From Candidatus Absconditabacterales bacterium (GTDB lineage: Bacteria; Patescibacteria; JAEDAM01; Absconditabacterales; Absconditicoccaceae): a stretch of DNA of 6,371 bases. A program made the position numbers and the translations under genes. Numbering within the stretch: the first letter of the stretch is position 1; each line of letters begins with the position of its first letter. The stretch spans positions 1-6,371 of the forward strand of contig CALLUT010000129.1 of NCBI GenBank assembly GCA_938010495.1, written 5' to 3'. The notes under the pieces were generated by a model. That model made no database searches. It worked only from the letters and a program-made list of their open reading frames with translations, and was not told the DNA's origin. Shown here piece by piece: positions 1-6,371 of this stretch.

Positions 1-3000
1 AGATACGAGCTGATGAGATACAATTTGATGAGATACGAGCTGATGAGATACGAGCTGATGAGATACAAGTTGATGAGATACGAGTTGATGAGATACAAGC
101 TGATGAGATACGAGCTGATGAGATACGAGCTGATGAAATTGAGAATGATTAGAATGAGAAGGTGATAATGATTGAGACTGAGAGGAGGAAGAAGAAGAGG
201 AAGAAGAAGAGGAAGAAGAAGATACTTGATGAATGTGTCCAACGGATACTGAACCAACACAAGGCCCTCCAGAGTGACGATATAATGATTGATCAGATGC
301 ATTTTGAGAAGCATCATGAAACGTATGAGAAACACTTCGACCTGAAGCAGTTGAAGATGATATAAATGTTATGTACTTGAACTTGTTTGGGAAAGAGCAT
401 TGAAACGCTCGTAAGACAACTGAGCTATTGTCTAATACTAAAACACTTTCAATTACAACCTATCAAAATATATGATGATCAAGAGCTAGTCGTCGTATTG
501 TTGCATCAATAATTTATCCTGATGGGACGGTAAATGATAAGAAGAATATTGTTAAAGAACTCGTTGCTGAGTGATGAGACATTGTATACCTGTTGTGATA
601 TAATTGATGAATTTGAAGAGTAAGAATAGGTTCTTATACAGAATTTGACTTTGTAGAAGAATGAAAAGAATACACTGATAGACCAAACAAATTAGTGTAT
701 ACACCTTCTTGATGAGATAGTGTGACTGATTGATCATCGTTTAGTAATTGAAGATTAATTCATAACGACGAAGTTATGGTGGATTTTGTTACATGAACAA
801 TGGATCCTGATATCTTTATACGTCTTCCTGAATGATGATGAGATGAATGGATTGTTACCTATAAAAACAAAAAAATCTGAACTATGTGGATATATAGATG
901 AACAGATGAATTAGATAAAGATGTAAAATTATATCGTAGTGATTATACGATCGAAAATTTACCATGATGAAATAGTAACCTTTCTGAAGAAGCTGTTACT
1001 ATATTATTGGATAGTGAAGAAGAAGCATGATGATGAGATATCTTTGAATCAATTGAGGCTTCTGTAAATCCAAACAATAACGTTTGATTTAGACATGAAT
1101 TTGCATCTATTACAAACTTTTCACAATGAATGAGTGTTGGTAATGCAACGAAACAATTTGGGTGATTATTCCTTATGAACATATGAGATCCATTTTTAAA
1201 GAGGATTGAAGATAACCGTAAAATTAAGCATACAGATTATGACTGATGACTTGGACAAGTAATTTTTTCAGATACAACATCTTTTGAAGATGTTGATATG
1301 ATGGATTATGATAATGATTGAAGAGATGATATGATCATTACGTATAAAGATGGTTCATTAAGATTAATGAAAAATTATTGATGAGAAAATCCGTACAAAG
1401 ATATGGGTAATCTTATTGTTATTCCTGATTGAATTAAGGAAACATATTTATGAGATATGAATTGAGATTGATGGGATGATATATTGGTATATACTAAAGC
1501 TGATAAATTAAGAGCATACATGAATAATGAGTGACAAATTGAAGTTGATTGAACACCTGTTTGTTTAGATATTCCGAATTGAGAGTTTAACGCAGCACAA
1601 GTGAGACAATTATTTGCGACAGATCTAGATGGATGAGGGCTTGATATCATCACCTTAGATACAACCTGAGATCTAAAAGTATTTTATTGATGATGATGAT
1701 CACAACCTTCATACTTGTCTCTCGACCAATTTTCATGTGATGAGTGACGGCGTTGAAGATTAAATCAACAACTAATTAAATCATTTGGAGCAACACTATG
1801 ATGACCAATAAAAGACTATAGTCTTCGTTCTTGGGATCAACTTGAACCTCTTGGTGATATTGAATTAGATATTCCAGCTCCAGAATTAAGTCAATATGCC
1901 GATATAGATTTTGAAGAGTTACCAAAAGATATAGTTAAAGAACTTGCACATCAAATGGTAGAAGAATCTATAGATGGAGCAAAAGCTGTATGAGATCCAG
2001 AAATGTTATTAGAATTAGCAAAAAAGAAAATTGATTATGTGTTGGAAGTTCCAGATAGCCTTCTTCCTGACGAAGAAAGATGATCTTGAGAAACGAAATA
2101 TTGAATACGTGCAAACGACCTCTACCCAGAATGACCAAAGTTTGATGCAGTGAAATCATTTATGGATCTTGATTGATGAGATCTTCAAAAATGAGATATG
2201 GTGAGAGTGACAGTGTCTATAACTCCAGAAGGTGCTACAAATATGAAGTATTGGGAAAAATTAGATGGGCCATGGATTATATATAGAGATGAATTTTGAT
2301 GAATTCCTTCGTTTGAATGATCACTATGATGATGAGAAGTAAATTGGAACATTGGTAATTGATATGAGTTCTTAGTACATGGAATGAATTGAGCTGCTAC
2401 ATTTTCTTTTGAAGCCCAATATGATTGAGATGGATATGTACACATATATATAGAGACGGAAGAAGAAAAACTATTTAGATGAACAACTGACCAATCTGTT
2501 GCTTGATTATGATCACCAGTATATGCTCAATGATGATGGGATAAAAAAATTAGGGCATACTCAGATGATGGTTGTTATAAGAAGTATTGGGAATTTTCTC
2601 CATGAGAAGAAGAAGTTGATTTGCAACCATTCTTAGATGAGAAGACACAAGAGTATACCGATTATTTTAGTGATCAACGTGATGAAACTGAAGAAATTAT
2701 TGAACACAATACTGACTTAGGTCCACTTGAAGAAATGATATGAGTGCCAACAAAACTATCAAATAGTTGATATGAATCTTGGAAAAAGACAGCGATAAAT
2801 ACACTATTACAATGATGATGATGATCTTTTGAAATAGATGCTACGCAATATAATGAATACTTTGAAAATCTAGCAGAAGAGACTATCGAACGTCTATGGA
2901 AACTTCCAGTTAAATGATTGGATCTCATATGATTTGATTCACTTGGTATGTTTGAAGATGTTTCTTTCTCAGATTTGAAATGTTGATCCTCAACGTTTGG

Positions 3001-6000
3001 TAAGAAAAGTTGTTGATTTGGTTTACCTATTCCATTTAATAATGATCTTCTTTCTCCATGAGATTTTCATATTTTTGGTTGTAAACCTAAGGCTCCTGAA
3101 ATTCCAAAATTTTTCCCACACTTTAAATGACTTCCAATTTTTGCTTTCCCAACTGATGTCGCTGTATTACCAGTTTGGCCGCCTTCTCCTCCTGGGGCAT
3201 GATGAATACCTCCTTTTGGAACATCTGAATCATCAACATCTGTAATTAGAGCATATGTAACGATGACAACATCATGATGAGTTTGATTATCATTATGTTT
3301 TGCTCCATATGATACAGTAAAACTTCCTGCACCGATTTGAGATGTGTGATGAAACTGTTTGGTGATTGCATGAAGTATGCCTTGAGGACAATGTTATGGT
3401 GAATGAGAAGATAATAATCCACCGCTACCTACGAGAATTACTTCAGCAAATAGTTGAGAATGAGAAGCAACAGACATAATAACACCAGAACATATGGATC
3501 TGTATCGTACAGGAACATGTGATTGGAAACAACAAGATGCAAGTCCTGTAGTTTCACCAGTATTATGATGACCAGTGTCTGTTCCAGGGAAACCTAAGAG
3601 TGTTCAAATGACACAACAAACCCAATGAACAAGCTATTTGAAGTGATGAGAAACATTTGATTTAAAGATTGAATGAGGAACATGAAAATGACTTGTTCAA
3701 TGTATTGTTAGAAAATGGACTGAAAACCAAACAAGATATTTTGCAAACAATGCTTTGAATATGCAGATAGATGTTGTTCTTCCAAGAATTGATATGTTAT
3801 CAGAAAATTTTGAAGATATACAAGATATTGATGATGATCGTTTTTCATACCAGTATTGATTTGATAATGCAGAAGCTGCAACAAGTAAAACAACTGAAGT
3901 ATGATGAGCAAGTTTATCTTCTGATCCTAAAGAAAAAAACAAGAATGTGTTACCACCACATGCTATGCTTGAGTCAATGACAAACAATATTGGTAACCCA
4001 TTTGATTTTATAGCATCATACTTTGATAACATTCCATTGGTAGATTTTGAAGAAAGAGATGTGCCAATTCTTATACCATTTATTTATCAAGAAGATTTAG
4101 ATAGGTATGAATTTCATTTGAAGTCATGGTTAGAAAGGAATAAAAAAATTCTTGCTGAATGGCAATCTCATCAAGAAGATTGACGGATTACCCTGGTAGA
4201 TACTGATGCAATTACTCAAATGGAAAGAGCTCTTAAATGAGTTGAAACAAATCTTGCAATATTAAAACTCTATAAAAAATTACCATGACAAATATATGAA
4301 TTACTCCATGCATCAGATAAATATGTTGCAGAAATAATATGATTTGCTCAACAATTTGTATGAGAAATTACATGATGGTTACAAAATAATGCAAATAGGT
4401 TCTCAGCCTGGGTAGACTTCATTGTCGTTTTGAAGTGAATTATTGAAACATGGCAATTGCTTATTGATTTTACGGTCAAACGACAATCAAAATGTTCTAA
4501 ATGTAGGCAAGATAGTTATGATTATTATTCATGTAAGTTGAAATTCTTATGTGTTGATCTTCCTATTTTACCAATTCCTCCATTCCATTTACCAAATATA
4601 AAAATTGACCTCTCTAAGGTGGACATATGATTAGATATTATATTACCACAATTCCGTTTTGTTCCAAAGAAAGTTACTTTACCAAAAATACCTGATCTAC
4701 CAACTCCTAAATGAATAGAATTTGAAGTGATTGTGCCTCAAATTCCACGTTTACCAAGACCACCTCCATTACCTGAATTACCAACATTAGAGATCGATCT
4801 TGAAATGAGATTGCCGACATTGCCACCTGCTCCAAAAGTTCCAAAATTAAGTCCAGTAATTAAAGTTGTTGTAAAATTAGCAGATTTGATTGGTTCATTT
4901 ATGTGTATATTTAAATGATGAATAGGTCTTGTTAGAGAAAAATATATCAAAGCAAGAGTTGAACAAATGACTCAGAGAAAACAAGATGTACTTCCATTTG
5001 ATGAACTACAAATCACTATCCCAGCGGGACCAATTGAATGATATGATTATAAAATTGATTCATTAGTAGATCTAAAAGCCGACTTTAGACAATTATATGA
5101 TATTGTTGACTGAGTAGTTGCTGATCGAAATTTCTTTGTTGAACAAAAAGCTCAAAAAGTAAAAAGCGCAGTTGCTAGTGTTGGAGATTGAAATATATGA
5201 CTTATAGATGATATCTGAATTGAAACTGATATAGAAATTGATCTTTCAAATTGATTTGGATGAGCAATACCAACTGATGATCAGCTTGCTGCACATATTG
5301 AGAAAGAAAGAAGTAAATTCTACGTTTGATGAGAAGTTGAAGATGTTAGAGAAAATCTACTTGAATGATTAGCGTTTATTAAGAGTCGTCAAGATCTTCA
5401 TATTTATCATGATCAATCAGATAGAATAAAAAATGTTTTAGAGAGTACTCCATTAGTAACTCCTAATTATGAATGACTTGAAAGAGTGTGAGTAGATATG
5501 CAAGAATATCTTATAGAGCAGTATGATACTATTCGTGATCAAAAGAAATTAGTATATGAGGATTATGATGCTTTTCTAGATACGTTGGTTGTATTCAGCA
5601 ATGTTTCAGATACTACAAATAATAGACAATTTGGTACAGCACTCTATGAGACTGACGCAGCAACAAAAGAAATGATTCGTAATCAAGAACATCCATTAAA
5701 AACTTACTTAACTCTAAATAAAGGTGTTGTTGATTGATATAGTAATGCTCTTGAAAATAATTCTGCAGTAGAATTACAAATGAATGACTTAAGATATGAA
5801 GAAACTCGTTCATATGTTAATGTATTATCAGAAAGAATCTCTGTATTATTAGATAATGGATTTAATAATACATCGACAATAAACCAGACACTTCCGTTGC
5901 TCGCTCAAAATACATGATGATGAACTCAAGCAGAATTAGTATGCGATGATGAAGTCGATAATGATTGAGATGAATTAGTTGACTGTGATGATGATGATTG

Positions 6001-6371
6001 TTCTGAAGATCCATTTTGTGAAGAAGGAGGATCTAGTAGTAGCTCATCAAGCAGTTCATCATCATCAAGTTCAAGTAGTAGTTCATCCTCTAGTTCAAGT
6101 AGTTCATCCTCTAGTTCATCAAGTAGTTGATGATGTTCATGATGAAGTTGTTGAGTATGATCAGCTAACTCTAGTTCATCTAGCAGTTGATGAGATAGCA
6201 GTTGATGAGATAGCAGTTGATGAGATAGTAATTGATGAGATAGTAGTTGATGAGATAGTAGTTGATGAGATAGTAGTTGATGAGATAGTAGTTGATGAGA
6301 TAGTAGTTGATGAGATAGTAGTTGATGAGATAGTAGTTGATGAGATAGTAGTTGATGAGATAGTAGTTGAT
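1..6371 (+). CDS. Giant multidomain surface/secreted protein, partial at both ends (genetic code 25, UGA = Gly)
   Basis: One frame, with codons starting at base 2, is open across the whole window (about 2,123 codons) when TGA is read as glycine; I walked it and met no TAA or TAG. Under the standard code it would be broken well over 100 times. Visible modules in order are a D-T-S-G-G array, acidic linker, unrecognised beta-rich region, FG-GAP/VCBS-like blades (about residues 380-566), an Ig-like candidate (721-824), Cys/Pro-rich modules (994-1065 and 1498-1620), long helical stretches, a Cys/Asp motif (1981-2006), poly-Ser (2011-2042) and an S-S-G-G-D array. This architecture is typical of large bacterial exported surface proteins, so an extracellular location is inferred. 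No start, ribosome binding site, signal peptide, stop or anchor is visible, and no neighbour gene is present. Role in adhesion is only a guess. The open frame and recoding are near certain; the function is not. Confidence 0.93.
2..136 (+). repeat. 15-bp tandem repeat, nine units, encoding D-T-S-G-G
   Basis: Nine contiguous units of GATACGAGCTGATGA and close variants, in frame, each encode Asp-Thr-Ser-Gly-Gly with both glycines as TGA. The second unit has Ile in place of Ser. Units differ mostly at third positions (ACG/ACA, AGC/AGT), so they are diverged but still recognisable at the DNA level. The array enters from the left edge, so its true length is unknown. A Gly/Ser/Thr/Asp-rich pentapeptide array of this kind would be a flexible, hydrophilic spacer. 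Gain or loss of units by slippage would keep the frame. Confidence 0.95.
137..232 (+). other. Acidic Gly/Asp/Glu linker with a run of 13 glutamates
   Basis: After the pentapeptide array the frame encodes alternating Gly, Glu, Asp and Asn (residues 46-60), then 13 consecutive Glu from GAG and GAA codons (bases 182-220, residues 61-73), then D-T-G-G. The stretch is expected to be disordered and highly negatively charged; calcium binding or simple spacing are both possible. The purine-rich tract looks like a Lys/Arg-rich peptide if read one frame over with the standard code, which is an artefact. Confidence 0.8.
233..1138 (+). other. Unrecognised region, low complexity then beta-rich (residues 78-379)
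   Basis: The first part (to about residue 120) is rich in Gly, Pro, Glu and Asn and looks like linker. The rest alternates short hydrophobic strands with Gly/Asp turns, for example R-I-V-A-S-I-I-Y-P-D-G-T near residue 165 and D-E-W-I-V-T-Y-K near residue 281. It has several TGA-encoded Gly-Gly and Gly-Gly-Gly turns and almost no Cys. The pattern suggests one or more extracellular beta-sandwich or beta-propeller-like modules, perhaps including early blades of the propeller that follows. I do not recognise a named family. Confidence 0.5.
1139..1702 (+). other. FG-GAP/VCBS-like beta-propeller blades with calcium loops
   Basis: Three Asp-rich loops occur about 50-56 residues apart: D-Y-D-N-D-G-R-D-D (bases 1304-1330, residues 435-443), D-M-N-G-D-G-W-D-D (1454-1480, residues 485-493) and D-L-D-G-G-G-L-D-I-I (1622-1651, from residue 541). 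The first two are each followed by a hydrophobic strand and a Gly/Asp or charged turn, as in M-I-I-T-Y-K-D-G and I-L-V-Y-T-K. FG-GAP/VCBS blades carry a D-x-D/N-x-D-G-x-x-D calcium loop and repeat at about this spacing, usually in extracellular adhesins and integrin-like propellers. The essential Gly of the first two loops is TGA. A full propeller needs about seven blades; only three are clear, so it may be partial or continue into less conserved sequence upstream. Confidence 0.75.
1895..2161 (+). other. Short helical segment and linker
   Basis: Residues about 632-720 begin with Tyr/Asp/Glu-rich sequence, then an amphipathic run with Lys, Glu, Leu, Val and Ile at helical spacing (L-P-K-D-I-V-K-E-L-A-H and M-L-L-E-L-A-K-K-K-I-D-Y-V-L). 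A Pro/Gly/charged linker follows. It separates the propeller-like region from the Ig-like candidate. No family is recognised. Confidence 0.45.
2162..2473 (+). other. Ig-like beta-sandwich candidate (DUF11-like), tentative
   Basis: Residues about 721-824 read as a run of short strands: a D-L-x-x-G-D-M-V-R-V-T-V-S-I-T-P opening, then N-M-K-Y-W-E-K-L-D-G, a W-N-I-G-N-G turn, then A-A-T-F-S-F-E-A-Q-Y and Y-V-H-I-Y-I-E-T at the end. A 'GD-hydrophobic-V-x-V-x-I' opening, a middle W-x-I-G-x-G element and a closing strand pair resemble DUF11/CARDB-type surface Ig-like domains. Such domains act as stalk or binding modules outside the cell. The match is by eye only. Confidence 0.45.
2474..2980 (+). other. 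Mixed acidic and helical region, unrecognised
   Basis: Residues about 825-993 are acidic with several aromatic residues (W-D-K-K-I-R-A-Y, Y-K-K-Y-W-E-F), then a Glu/Asp/Gln/Thr-rich helical stretch. A four-glycine run at bases 2813-2824 is encoded entirely by TGA. The segment ends with a hydrophobic/charged stretch (E-R-L-W-K-L-P-V-K) leading to the first Cys/Pro-rich module. I do not recognise a family. Confidence 0.4.
2981..3196 (+). other. First Cys/Pro-rich module
   Basis: Residues 994-1066 contain Cys at 994, 1004 and 1027 (C-x9-C-x22-C) and many Pro in hydrophobic settings: L-P-I-P-F, A-P-E-I-P-K-F-F-P, L-P-I-F-A-F-P and finally W-P-P-S-P-P-G. The segment is nearly free of helix-forming charged runs. 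A similar Cys-then-L-P-I-P arrangement appears again at bases 4493-4861, so the two may be related modules. Cys pairs would suit disulphide bonds outside the cell. No family is recognised. Confidence 0.5.
3197..4078 (+). other. Beta-rich region with scattered Cys, unrecognised
   Basis: Residues about 1067-1359. It starts with strand-like sequence (V-I-R-A-Y-V-T-M-T-T and G-L-S-L-C-F-A-P) and a G-N-C-L-V-I-A element, followed by a Gly/Glu/Asn/Pro linker. From about base 3587 comes a second strand-rich block with G-E-T-F-D-L-K-I-E-G and L-V-Q-C-I-V-R-K-W, ending in V-V-L-P-R-I-D-M-L. Acidic, Ser- and Asn-rich sequence then leads to the helical region. It may hold one or two Ig-like modules, but I cannot name a family. 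Confidence 0.4.
4079..4492 (+). other. Long helical / coiled-coil-like region
   Basis: Residues about 1360-1497 lack Pro except in one K-L-P-G turn. They show hydrophobics every three to four residues among Lys, Glu, Gln and Arg (H-L-K-S-W-L-E-R-N-K-K-I-L, then M-E-R-A-L-K-G-V-E-T-N-L-A-I-L-K). The last part (A-W-V-D-F-I-V-V-L-K-G-I-I-E) is very hydrophobic but carries charged residues, so it is more likely an amphipathic or buried helix than a membrane span. It would form a rigid rod or helical bundle. Confidence 0.5.
4493..4552 (+). other. Four-cysteine cluster C-x2-C-x9-C-x5-C
   Basis: Cys residues at 1498, 1501, 1511 and 1517 (TGT codons at 4493, 4502, 4532 and 4550) lie in a short Lys/Ser/Tyr-rich segment between the helical region and the Pro-rich module. 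The spacing could bind a metal such as zinc, or form two disulphides if the protein is exported, which the architecture favours. Confidence 0.6.
4556..4861 (+). other. Second Pro-rich module with L-P-x-(I/L)-P repeats
   Basis: Residues about 1519-1620 consist of irregular strands punctuated by Pro: L-P-I-L-P-I-P-P, L-P-K-I-P-D-L-P-T-P, V-P-Q-I-P-R-L-P-R-P-P-P, L-P-E-L-P and L-P-T-L-P-P-A-P-K-V-P-K-L. Between them lie alternating hydrophobic/charged strands such as I-K-I-D-L-S-K-V-D-I. It is a degenerate repeat at protein level, with no tandem DNA repeat. An extended or polyproline-type stalk, or a strand-rich fold with Pro turns, are both possible. Confidence 0.6.
4862..5938 (+). other. Second helical region, unrecognised
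   Basis: Residues about 1621-1979. A hydrophobic helix candidate (V-V-V-K-L-A-D-L-I-G-S-F-M-C-I-F-K) is followed by basic helical sequence. Then come long Asp/Glu/Lys/Gln/Tyr-rich amphipathic stretches with few Pro and few Cys, broken by a Gly/Asp/Ile strand-like patch near bases 5185-5265. Heptad-like spacing is suggestive around residues 1760-1960. It is likely a coiled-coil or helical bundle stalk. The hydrophobic helix could be a membrane segment but is short and interrupted by Lys and Asp. Confidence 0.45.
5942..6019 (+). other. Cys/Asp-rich metal-binding-like motif (MopE-type pattern)
   Basis: Residues 1981-2006 show Cys at 1981, 1995, 2000 and 2006 around the core V-D-N-D-G-D-E-L-V-D-C-D-D-D-D-C, whose Gly is TGA (base 5966). 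The pattern C-x-D/N-x-x-D-N/D-D-G-D-x-x-x-D-C-x-D-x-D-C is a recurring short motif in bacterial surface proteins, often next to Ser- or Gly-rich linkers, and is thought to bind calcium or another metal. Here it sits directly before the Ser tract, the usual kind of context. Confidence 0.65.
6032..6127 (+). other. Poly-serine tract, 32 consecutive Ser
   Basis: Residues 2011-2042 are all Ser, encoded by a mix of TCT, AGT, AGC, TCA and TCC. The mixture of TCN and AGY codons argues that poly-Ser itself is maintained rather than being a fresh single-codon expansion, although short DNA sub-repeats (TCATCCTCTAGT) are visible. It is a flexible linker and a possible glycosylation site. A Gly/Ser/Cys segment follows (G-G-C-S-G-G-S-C-G, bases 6128-6154). 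Confidence 0.9.
6182..6371 (+). repeat. 15-bp tandem repeat, 12 full units plus 10 bp, encoding S-S-G-G-D
   Basis: Units of AGTAGTTGATGAGAT run in frame to the right edge and encode Ser-Ser-Gly-Gly-Asp, all glycines being TGA. The first three units use AGC AGT, the fourth reads AGT AAT (Ser-Asn), and the later ones are identical. That suggests recent homogenisation or expansion toward the 3' side. The unit matches the left-hand array (D-T-S-G-G) in length, phase and the shared TGATGAGAT core. True length is unknown because the window ends inside it. Confidence 0.95.

What the first reader, a model, noticed from the sequence alone, without database searches (positions are those of the whole stretch)
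1..6371. In-frame TGA reassigned to glycine (genetic code 25)
One frame has no TAA or TAG over about 2,123 codons but well over 100 TGA. TGA occupies the Gly of D-x-D/N-x-D-G calcium loops and of Gly-Gly repeats, and sits beside GGN codons (GGA TGA GGG at 1631-1639), while TGG is used separately at Trp sites such as the G-W-D-D loop at 1472. This points to Absconditabacteria or Gracilibacteria. Standard-code gene calling would break the gene into many false small ORFs.
Basis: partly seen in the sequence, partly recalled or inferred. Interest (0 to 1): 0.75.

Follow-up and report, generated by a model that had tools for sequence, protein, structure and literature searches.

The report
Giant surface-protein gene, doubly recoded
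This DNA is a piece of one very long gene, probably for a surface protein, of a tiny bacterium that reads the stop codon TGA as glycine and very probably also reads two arginine codons as tryptophan; both code changes are already known in such bacteria.

Summary
In detail: frame +2 is open over 2,123 codons with no TAA or TAG and 199 TGA. TGA is glycine. In standard-code relatives 9 of 13 conserved TGA columns are Gly; the three nearest relatives swap TGA with GGN, show no RF2, and two of them carry tRNA(UCA) with glycine identity bases.

"Code 25" is only part of it. The window groups at 100/99 with three genomes inside a clade of 30 whose CGA/CGG codons sit mostly in TGG-type columns (77 of 108; Arg-type 8; neither 23). 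The three nearest carry tRNA(UCG) and tRNA(CCG) with tryptophan-type identity bases. Window CGA at 338 and 4481 pair only with TGG or CGA in the nearest relatives that align there. This double change is in print for Absconditabacteria (PMC8629427, passages).

The gene is an inner piece of a giant protein; complete-looking relatives have 4,005 to 5,849 codons, and the family matches 229 of 353 genomes of the class. Its ends lie in 15-bp repeats. A surface adhesin is the likely role, by inference. Ordinary for this lineage.

The parts
2..6370 (+). one open frame, both ends open: internal part of a giant protein gene (TGA read as Gly)
   Evidence: aa 102-2003 align with aa 1837-3746 of a 4,499-codon frame in relative L062
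1..136 (+). 15-bp tandem repeat, 9.1 copies, coding (Asp-Thr-Ser-Gly-Gly)n with both Gly as TGA
181..222 (+). Glu-rich run (GAR repeats)
1304..1489 (+). FG-GAP-like repeat (aa 435-496 is the best stretch); TGA is the Gly of D-x-D/N-x-D-G motifs
   Evidence: PF13517, 31.0 bits, cut-off 26.9; TGA at nt 1430 and 1469 faces Gly in 14 of 15 and 13 of 15 standard-code relatives
3719..5341 (+). family-wide conserved core: long helices, C-x-x-C, and a run of Leu-Pro / Pro-Pro motifs (most invariant columns at aa 1498-1667, nt 4493-5002)
   Evidence: alignment A2, 20 invariant columns in 31 sequences; AlphaFold2 model, mean pLDDT 62.6
278..280 (+). CGA codon, aa 93; no aligned partner, meaning inferred from the clade (Trp)
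338..340 (+). CGA codon, aa 113: TGG in L062, CGA in L063, not aligned in L065, GCT in L064
1748..1750 (+). CGG codon, aa 583: CGG in L064, Ala codons in L062, L063, L065
4184..4186 (+). CGG codon, aa 1395, in a variable stretch, uninformative
4481..4483 (+). CGA codon, aa 1494: in 30 recoded relatives TGG 15, CGA 12, CGG 3 and nothing else; Tyr 12, Phe 2, Leu 2 in 16 standard-code relatives
5126..5128 (+). CGA codon, aa 1709, variable column (Val codons in the three nearest)
5942..6001 (+). Asp-rich stretch with Cys at both ends (CDDEVDNDGDELVDCDDDDC), possible calcium-binding linker
   Evidence: sequence reading
6040..6128 (+). poly-serine linker, imperfect 21-bp repeat
6181..6371 (+). 15-bp tandem repeat, 12.7 copies at 98% match, coding (Asp-Ser-Ser-Gly-Gly)n, runs off the end

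Best explanation
The window is an internal fragment of one chromosomal gene for a giant, probably secreted surface protein of an Absconditabacteria-type member of the Candidate Phyla Radiation. Translation there works as follows. RF2 is lost, so UGA no longer stops. A tRNA(UCA) with glycine identity reads UGA as Gly, while tRNA-Trp(CCA) still reads UGG as Trp. CGA and CGG are read as Trp by tRNA(UCG) and tRNA(CCG), while Arg is carried by AGA/AGG and CGU/CGC. Shown in relatives: no RF2 over cut-off, the tRNA genes, the codon columns. Shown in the window: the open frame, the TGA columns, two CGA codons in Trp-type columns. Inferred: that the window's own cell has the same tRNAs and lacks RF2. 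The protein most likely projects from the cell surface on Ser/Gly/Asp-rich linkers and helps attach to a host cell; this role is inferred from the FG-GAP repeats here, from Big_1/invasin, SLH and TSP3 domains in one full-length relative, and from published accounts of giant surface proteins in the lineage. It has not been shown.
For: Open frame against chance. Against 16 standard-code relatives, with TGA masked, window TGA columns hold Gly in 181 of 570 cells, then Asp 57 and Ser 56; TGG columns hold Trp in 62 of 98. Against the three nearest relatives window TGA faces TGA in 105 and GGN in 83 of 350 cells, while window codons other than TGA and GGN face GGN in 1.3% and TGA in 1.8% of 4,545 cells. 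RF2 over the curated cut-off in 0 of 20 TGA-rich genomes and 15 of 16 standard-code ones; in G025, G026, G027 and G023 the single weak hit is RF1 (413.7-440.1 bits, 3 of 4 over the RF1 cut-off). The Gly-Gly-Gln of RF1 is written TGA TGA CAR in the 5 loci titled Patescibacteria or Gracilibacteria among the 10 found by a search for exactly that spelling. tRNA(UCA) with G1:C72, C2:G71, G3:C70, U73 in G025 and G027; tRNA(UCG) and tRNA(CCG) with A1:U72 and G73 and without A20 in all three nearest genomes. CGA/CGG columns. Window placed with G025, G026, G027 at 100/99.
Against: The window's own genome is not held, so its RF2 and tRNAs are untested. Of 13 conserved TGA columns in standard-code relatives 4 are not Gly (Ser at nt 1163, Asp at 1247 and 1634, Cys at 4340). 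The column likelihood test does not single out Gly for TGA: window N -2.2, G -3.2, W -32.6, C -27.4 (15 codons), and for the 30 clade members Ser and others score above Gly; it also fails to call GGT glycine in the window and the three nearest, and CGT or AGA arginine in the clade, so it has little power there; only the rejection of Trp and Cys for TGA and of Arg for CGA is clear. Only two of the window's six CGA/CGG codons are informative for Trp. In the clade 8 of 108 CGA/CGG codons, in six members, fall in Arg-type columns, 23 in neither, and 4 of 30 members show none in a TGG-type column. tRNA(UCA) was not among the tRNAs read from G026. The adhesion role rests on domains, and L062 and L063, the nearest relatives, gave no FG-GAP hit.
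Confidence: 0.88

Rival explanations
1. Plain genetic code 25: TGA is Gly, but CGA and CGG are still Arg in this organism, as in the sister recoded group g2.
For: Group g2 (12 genomes of the same class) has TGA in frame and uses CGA/CGG at Arg/Lys columns, so such a code exists nearby. Only two of six window codons speak for Trp.
Against: The tree places the window inside the CGA/CGG=Trp clade, sister to three genomes that carry the Trp-type tRNAs. In the column of nt 4481, 30 of 30 clade members have TGG, CGA or CGG. Of 17 aligned partners of window CGA/CGG codons in the four nearest relatives 7 are TGG, CGA or CGG and none is AGR or CGY.
Confidence: 0.09
2. TGA is tryptophan (code 4, Mycoplasma type).
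For: 11 of 13 database homologues have 2.9% Trp or more, up to 6.9%, the look of proteins called with TGA=W.
Against: Their Trp also falls at the window's GGN columns (for example 4 of 34, 3 of 16, 5 of 36), as miscalled Gly would. Standard-code relatives have Gly as the commonest residue at TGA columns. For the window's TGA, Trp scores 29 log units below Gly. TGA=W would make the core 8.5% Trp and 2.2% Gly.
Confidence: 0.005
3. A decayed gene, or a stop-codon readthrough or selenoprotein gene, in a normal-code organism.
For: ARAGORN labels the UCA tRNAs of relatives 'SeC' by anticodon.
Against: 199 TGA but no TAA or TAG in 2,123 codons; the tRNA(UCA) has 74 bases and Gly-type acceptor bases; relatives carry the same long TGA-bearing frame.
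Confidence: 0.005
4. The fragment comes from a phage or plasmid that lives in such bacteria and shares their code.
For: A phage with TGA=Gly is described for Absconditicoccaceae (PMC13059738, passages); the window's genome is not held.
Against: No relative found in viral contigs, no near DNA in phages or plasmids; the family matches 229 of 353 genomes of the class, most with a single match.
Confidence: 0.02

Closest known systems
SR1/Gracilibacteria code (NCBI table 25; Campbell 2013 and Rinke 2013, seen only as cited in PMC8629427 and PMC13059738)
   Same: UGA read as glycine; in relatives tRNA(UCA) with Gly identity and no RF2 over cut-off
   Different: Table 25 leaves CGA and CGG as Arg; here they behave as Trp in the window's clade
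Absconditabacteria code (Shulgina and Eddy 2021, PMC8629427, passages; Absconditabacterales in PMC13092985, passages)
   Same: UGA=Gly plus CGA and CGG=Trp; tRNA(UCG) and tRNA(CCG) with G73 and without A20 in the nearest relatives
   Different: No difference found. I recall from memory that it was given a later code number (37); no call shows this
Giant surface proteins of Absconditabacteria (Vampirococcus lugosii, PMC8080830; Strigamonas methylophilicida, PMC13059738; passages of both)
   Same: Very long, inferred membrane or surface location, adhesion domains including integrin-type; V. lugosii's ten longest are 1392-4163 aa

Membership tests
Genetic code 25 | TGA in frame at glycine sites, TAA/TAG absent from the frame | tested here: met
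   4 of 13 conserved TGA columns are not Gly in standard-code relatives
Genetic code 25 | No RF2 in the genome | tested here: inconclusive
   own genome not held; no match over the RF2 cut-off in 20 of 20 TGA-rich relatives, the three nearest included
Genetic code 25 | tRNA-Gly(UCA) | tested here: inconclusive
   own genome not held; found in 2 of the 3 nearest genomes, not among the tRNAs read from the third
Genetic code 25 | CGA and CGG remain Arg | tested here: not met
   clade: CGA columns Trp 0.34, Tyr 0.22, Arg 0.00 in standard-code relatives; window CGA at nt 4481 and 338 pair only with TGG/CGA in the nearest relatives that align there. For the window itself this rests on two codons
Absconditabacteria code (TGA=Gly, CGA/CGG=Trp) | CGA and CGG at Trp columns | tested here: met
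   met for the clade (exceptions 8 of 108 codons) and for two of the window's four CGA codons; its two CGG codons are uninformative
Absconditabacteria code (TGA=Gly, CGA/CGG=Trp) | tRNA(UCG) and tRNA(CCG) with Trp identity (G73, not A20) | tested here: inconclusive
   met in the three nearest genomes; the window's own genome is not held
Absconditabacteria (the taxon) | placement with named Absconditabacteria genomes | not tested
Giant FG-GAP surface protein family of the class | shared conserved core and FG-GAP repeats | tested here: met
   core aligned in 31 sequences with 20 invariant columns; FG-GAP_3 over cut-off in the window, L064 and L054; none in L062 or L063 at E 0.01
Giant FG-GAP surface protein family of the class | export signal and surface anchor | not testable with these tools
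   the window has neither end of the gene; relative L054 has an SLH domain, and signal-like N-termini are seen by eye in L054, L056 and L050

The most novel reading that the evidence does not exclude
One widespread giant gene of this class records four decoding states side by side: the standard code with RF2; TGA=Gly with CGA/CGG=Arg; TGA=Gly with CGG=Trp and CGA absent; and TGA=Gly with CGA and CGG=Trp. On its tree the Trp change of CGG needs at least two changes (two gains, or one gain and a loss), so the order of codon loss and recapture could be dated on a single gene, with the window's branch as a new deep member of the double-change clade.
Probability: 0.5. Interest if true: 0.42.

Novelty: new member of a known kind. 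Interest (0 to 1): 0.3.

Why it matters
The TGA change is textbook and the CGA/CGG change has been in print since 2021, so the biology is not new. The practical point is that code 25 is still stated for this lineage (PMC13059738, passages, for Absconditicoccaceae) and would turn Trp into Arg at CGA/CGG sites if the clade is the same. Database copies of this family are mostly Trp-rich, as if TGA had been read as Trp. The giant gene is also a handy reporter of the code for contigs without tRNA or release-factor genes, as here.

Tried and rejected
A search with aa 80-1960 gave no hit among the 7,987 candidates scored; aa 1240-1960 worked. Protein-pattern scans of genome contigs (17 stretches matched, none confirmed) and viral contigs found no relative, and near-identity DNA searches of phages and plasmids none. 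The tRNA pattern search hit 32 of 36 genomes, recoded and standard-code alike; I first took a recurring 28-base match for tRNA-Gly(UCA), but in the three loci of that kind that were scanned ARAGORN found no tRNA at the match, so I dropped it and went by RF00005. The fold search of the core model gave nothing at E <= 0.001 and the PDB sequence search only weak matches (best E 0.011). The Pfam hits Cache_3-Cache_2, YnfE, BBS2_Mid and PDZ_6 and the NCBIfam hits are below cut-off and not believed. Of six neighbouring frames of the complete gene in L064, one has a Metallophos and one a Peptidase_S74 domain, the other four nothing. Considered and rejected: CGG=Tyr in group g3; one column is Tyr in relatives, but in three others CGG alternates with TGG.

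Full report
Observation. Frame +2 runs open through the whole window: 2,123 codons, no TAA, no TAG, 199 TGA, 19 TGG, 44 GGN. Outside the end repeats the core has 1,902 codons with 142 TGA; in 300 second-order Markov simulations of it the longest TAA/TAG-free frame was 340 codons. With TGA as Gly the core is 9.7% Gly; with TGA as Trp it would be 8.5% Trp and 2.2% Gly.

What gene it is. Pfam finds FG-GAP_3, best at aa 435-496, 31.0 bits against a cut-off of 26.9. A search with aa 1240-1960 found 13 homologues among 7,988 scored candidates. The same part matches 229 of 353 genomes of the class of a genome titled Candidatus Gracilibacteria, reached through a release-factor motif search. In the 16 standard-code members studied, the frame holds no TGA and has 4,067 to 5,849 codons in 13 and 2,631, 4,494 and 4,848 in three that reach a contig end. 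The window aligns with aa 1837-3746 of a 4,499-codon frame (L062, cut by the locus edge) and aa 1568-3362 of a 4,005-codon frame with its own start and stop (L064), so it is an inner part of the gene. Both window ends lie in 15-bp coding repeats, D-T-S-G-G on the left and D-S-S-G-G on the right, which probably broke the assembly.

TGA is glycine. Against the 16 standard-code relatives, with TGA masked during alignment, window TGA columns hold Gly in 181 of 570 cells, then Asp 57 and Ser 56; TGG columns hold Trp in 62 of 98. Taking columns with at least 12 residues and one of them in at least 70%, I count 13 TGA columns. Nine are Gly: nt 1085 (12 of 12), 1127 (14 of 14), 1184 (15 of 15), 1430 (14 of 15), 1469 (13 of 15), 1667 (10 of 14), 4373 (15 of 16), 4628 (16 of 16), 4919 (13 of 16). 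Four are not: nt 1163 Ser 15 of 15, 1247 Asp 12 of 15, 1634 Asp 14 of 15, 4340 Cys 15 of 16. In the three nearest relatives window TGA faces TGA 105 and GGN 83 times in 350 cells, against 1.8% and 1.3% in 4,545 cells of other window codons. A Codetta-like likelihood over the conserved core rejects Trp and Cys for TGA but does not by itself pick Gly: window N -2.2, G -3.2, W -32.6, C -27.4; the 30 clade members give Ser first; the three nearest, g2 and g3 give Gly first. Its controls are mixed: TGG is Trp in every set, but GGT is not Gly in the window or the three nearest, and CGT and AGA are not Arg in the clade, so the test is weak for loosely conserved residues.

Release factors. With the RF2 model (TIGR00020), 0 of 20 TGA-rich genomes and 15 of 16 standard-code genomes pass the curated cut-off; the sixteenth (G277) has a partial match of 355 bits, and two of the 20 (G039, G046) have no match at all. 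In the four TGA-rich genomes checked with the RF1 model, the one match lies at the place of the weak RF2 match, at 413.7 to 440.1 bits, 3 of 4 over the cut-off of 423.25. A search of genome contigs for GGQHVN spelled with TGA TGA gave 10 stretches; the 5 titled Patescibacteria or Gracilibacteria read as RF1 around the motif, the other 5, in other bacteria, do not.

CGA and CGG are tryptophan in the window's clade. At window aa 1494 (CGA, nt 4481) 30 recoded relatives have TGG 15, CGA 12, CGG 3 and no other codon, while 16 standard-code relatives have Tyr 12, Phe 2, Leu 2. Over the core, CGA codons of the 30 genomes (62) sit at columns that are Trp 0.34, Tyr 0.22, Phe 0.09, Arg 0.00 in standard-code relatives; CGG (18) Trp 0.21, Tyr 0.30, Arg 0.00; AGR (282) Arg 0.21, Trp 0.00. 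The likelihood for CGA is W +80.1, R -130.6; for CGG W +17.6, Y +15.9, R -38.6; for the window's two usable CGA codons W +2.1, Y +1.5, R -4.2. In the three nearest relatives window TGG faces TGG 16 and CGA 10 times in 48 cells. Counted over the clade, 77 of 108 CGA/CGG codons lie in columns where other members use TGG more than Arg codons, 8 (in six members) in Arg-type columns and 23 in neither; 4 of 30 members (L023, L037, L042, L044) show none in a TGG-type column. Of the window's six codons only aa 113 and 1494 are informative.

tRNAs. RF00005 gave 27, 28 and 23 matches in G025, G026 and G027. I fetched and read most but not all of them: 24, 24 and 20 different sequence strings. G025 and G027 have tRNA(UCA) with G1:C72, C2:G71, G3:C70 and U73, the glycine rules given in PMC8629427 (passages). 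All three have tRNA(UCG) and tRNA(CCG) with A1:U72, G73 and U or G in place of A20, like their tRNA-Trp(CCA), while their Arg tRNAs (UCU, GCG, and CCU where found) have A20 (positions assigned by me on the printed sequences).

Placement. A maximum-likelihood tree of 64 rows (662 columns) puts the window beside L063, L062 and L065 (G026, G025, G027) at 100/99, inside a clade with all 30 g1 rows at 100/100; g2 and g3 form the sister clade at 100/100, with the 16 standard-code rows as outgroup. CGA/CGG were masked in the window but decoded by group in the other rows, which could draw group members together, not the window. g2 (12 genomes) uses CGA/CGG at Arg/Lys columns; g3 (5 genomes) has no CGA in the frames read, and CGG that alternates with TGG in several columns.

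What is in print. PMC8629427 (passages) reports UGA=Gly in Absconditabacteria and Gracilibacteria, CGA and CGG=Trp in Absconditabacteria, and CGG=Trp in some Gracilibacteria. PMC13092985 (passages) repeats that Absconditabacterales decode CGG and CGA as Trp. PMC8080830 and PMC13059738 (passages) describe giant surface proteins with adhesion domains in Absconditabacteria and suggest a role in host attachment; the passages seen give the code only as UGA=Gly.

Function of the protein. The standard-code relative L054 (4,067 codons) carries Big_1/invasin D3, a glycoside-hydrolase 2 C-terminal domain, FG-GAP, SLH and bacterial TSP3 over their cut-offs; the recoded relative L064 has FG-GAP_3 alone; L062 and L063 gave nothing over a cut-off. 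The AlphaFold2 model of the core (aa 1240-1780, 31 sequences) has mean pLDDT 62.6, with confident long helices, and no PDB match at E <= 0.001. A surface adhesin or stalk is the most likely role, at about 0.65, by inference from domains and published lifestyle.

Verdict. Real, correctly read in its main point, and known. The addition is that the code is very probably the double-change one, shown through relatives and two codons of the window.

Noticed in passing
L011-L015 (genomes G001-G005): In five genomes found by the RF1 motif the CGN box is nearly empty in the frames read: no CGA, at most 1 CGY, 1 to 7 CGG, with CGG alternating with TGG in several columns. It looks like CGG=Trp without CGA, an intermediate state.
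   Followed up: partly
L154-L165: A sister group has TGA in frame but keeps CGA/CGG at Arg columns; in four of its 12 members (L154, L157, L161, L162) TGA is rare, 6 to 15 in frames of 4,161 to 4,527 codons.
   Followed up: partly
P0002-P0014: 11 of 13 database homologues have 2.9% Trp or more, with Trp also at glycine columns, as expected if TGA had been read as Trp when the genes were called.
   Followed up: partly
window 6181-6371: A near-perfect 15-bp coding repeat (12.7 copies, 98% match) runs off the contig end; such an array could change length by slippage and vary the linker.
   Followed up: no
window 4493-5002: The part with most invariant columns is a proline ladder (LP and PP motifs) after a C-x-x-C motif, with no recognised fold.
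   Followed up: partly
L064:19025-19999: The frame beside the complete giant gene carries a Peptidase_S74 chaperone-of-endosialidase domain, which I recall from phage tail fibres.
   Followed up: no
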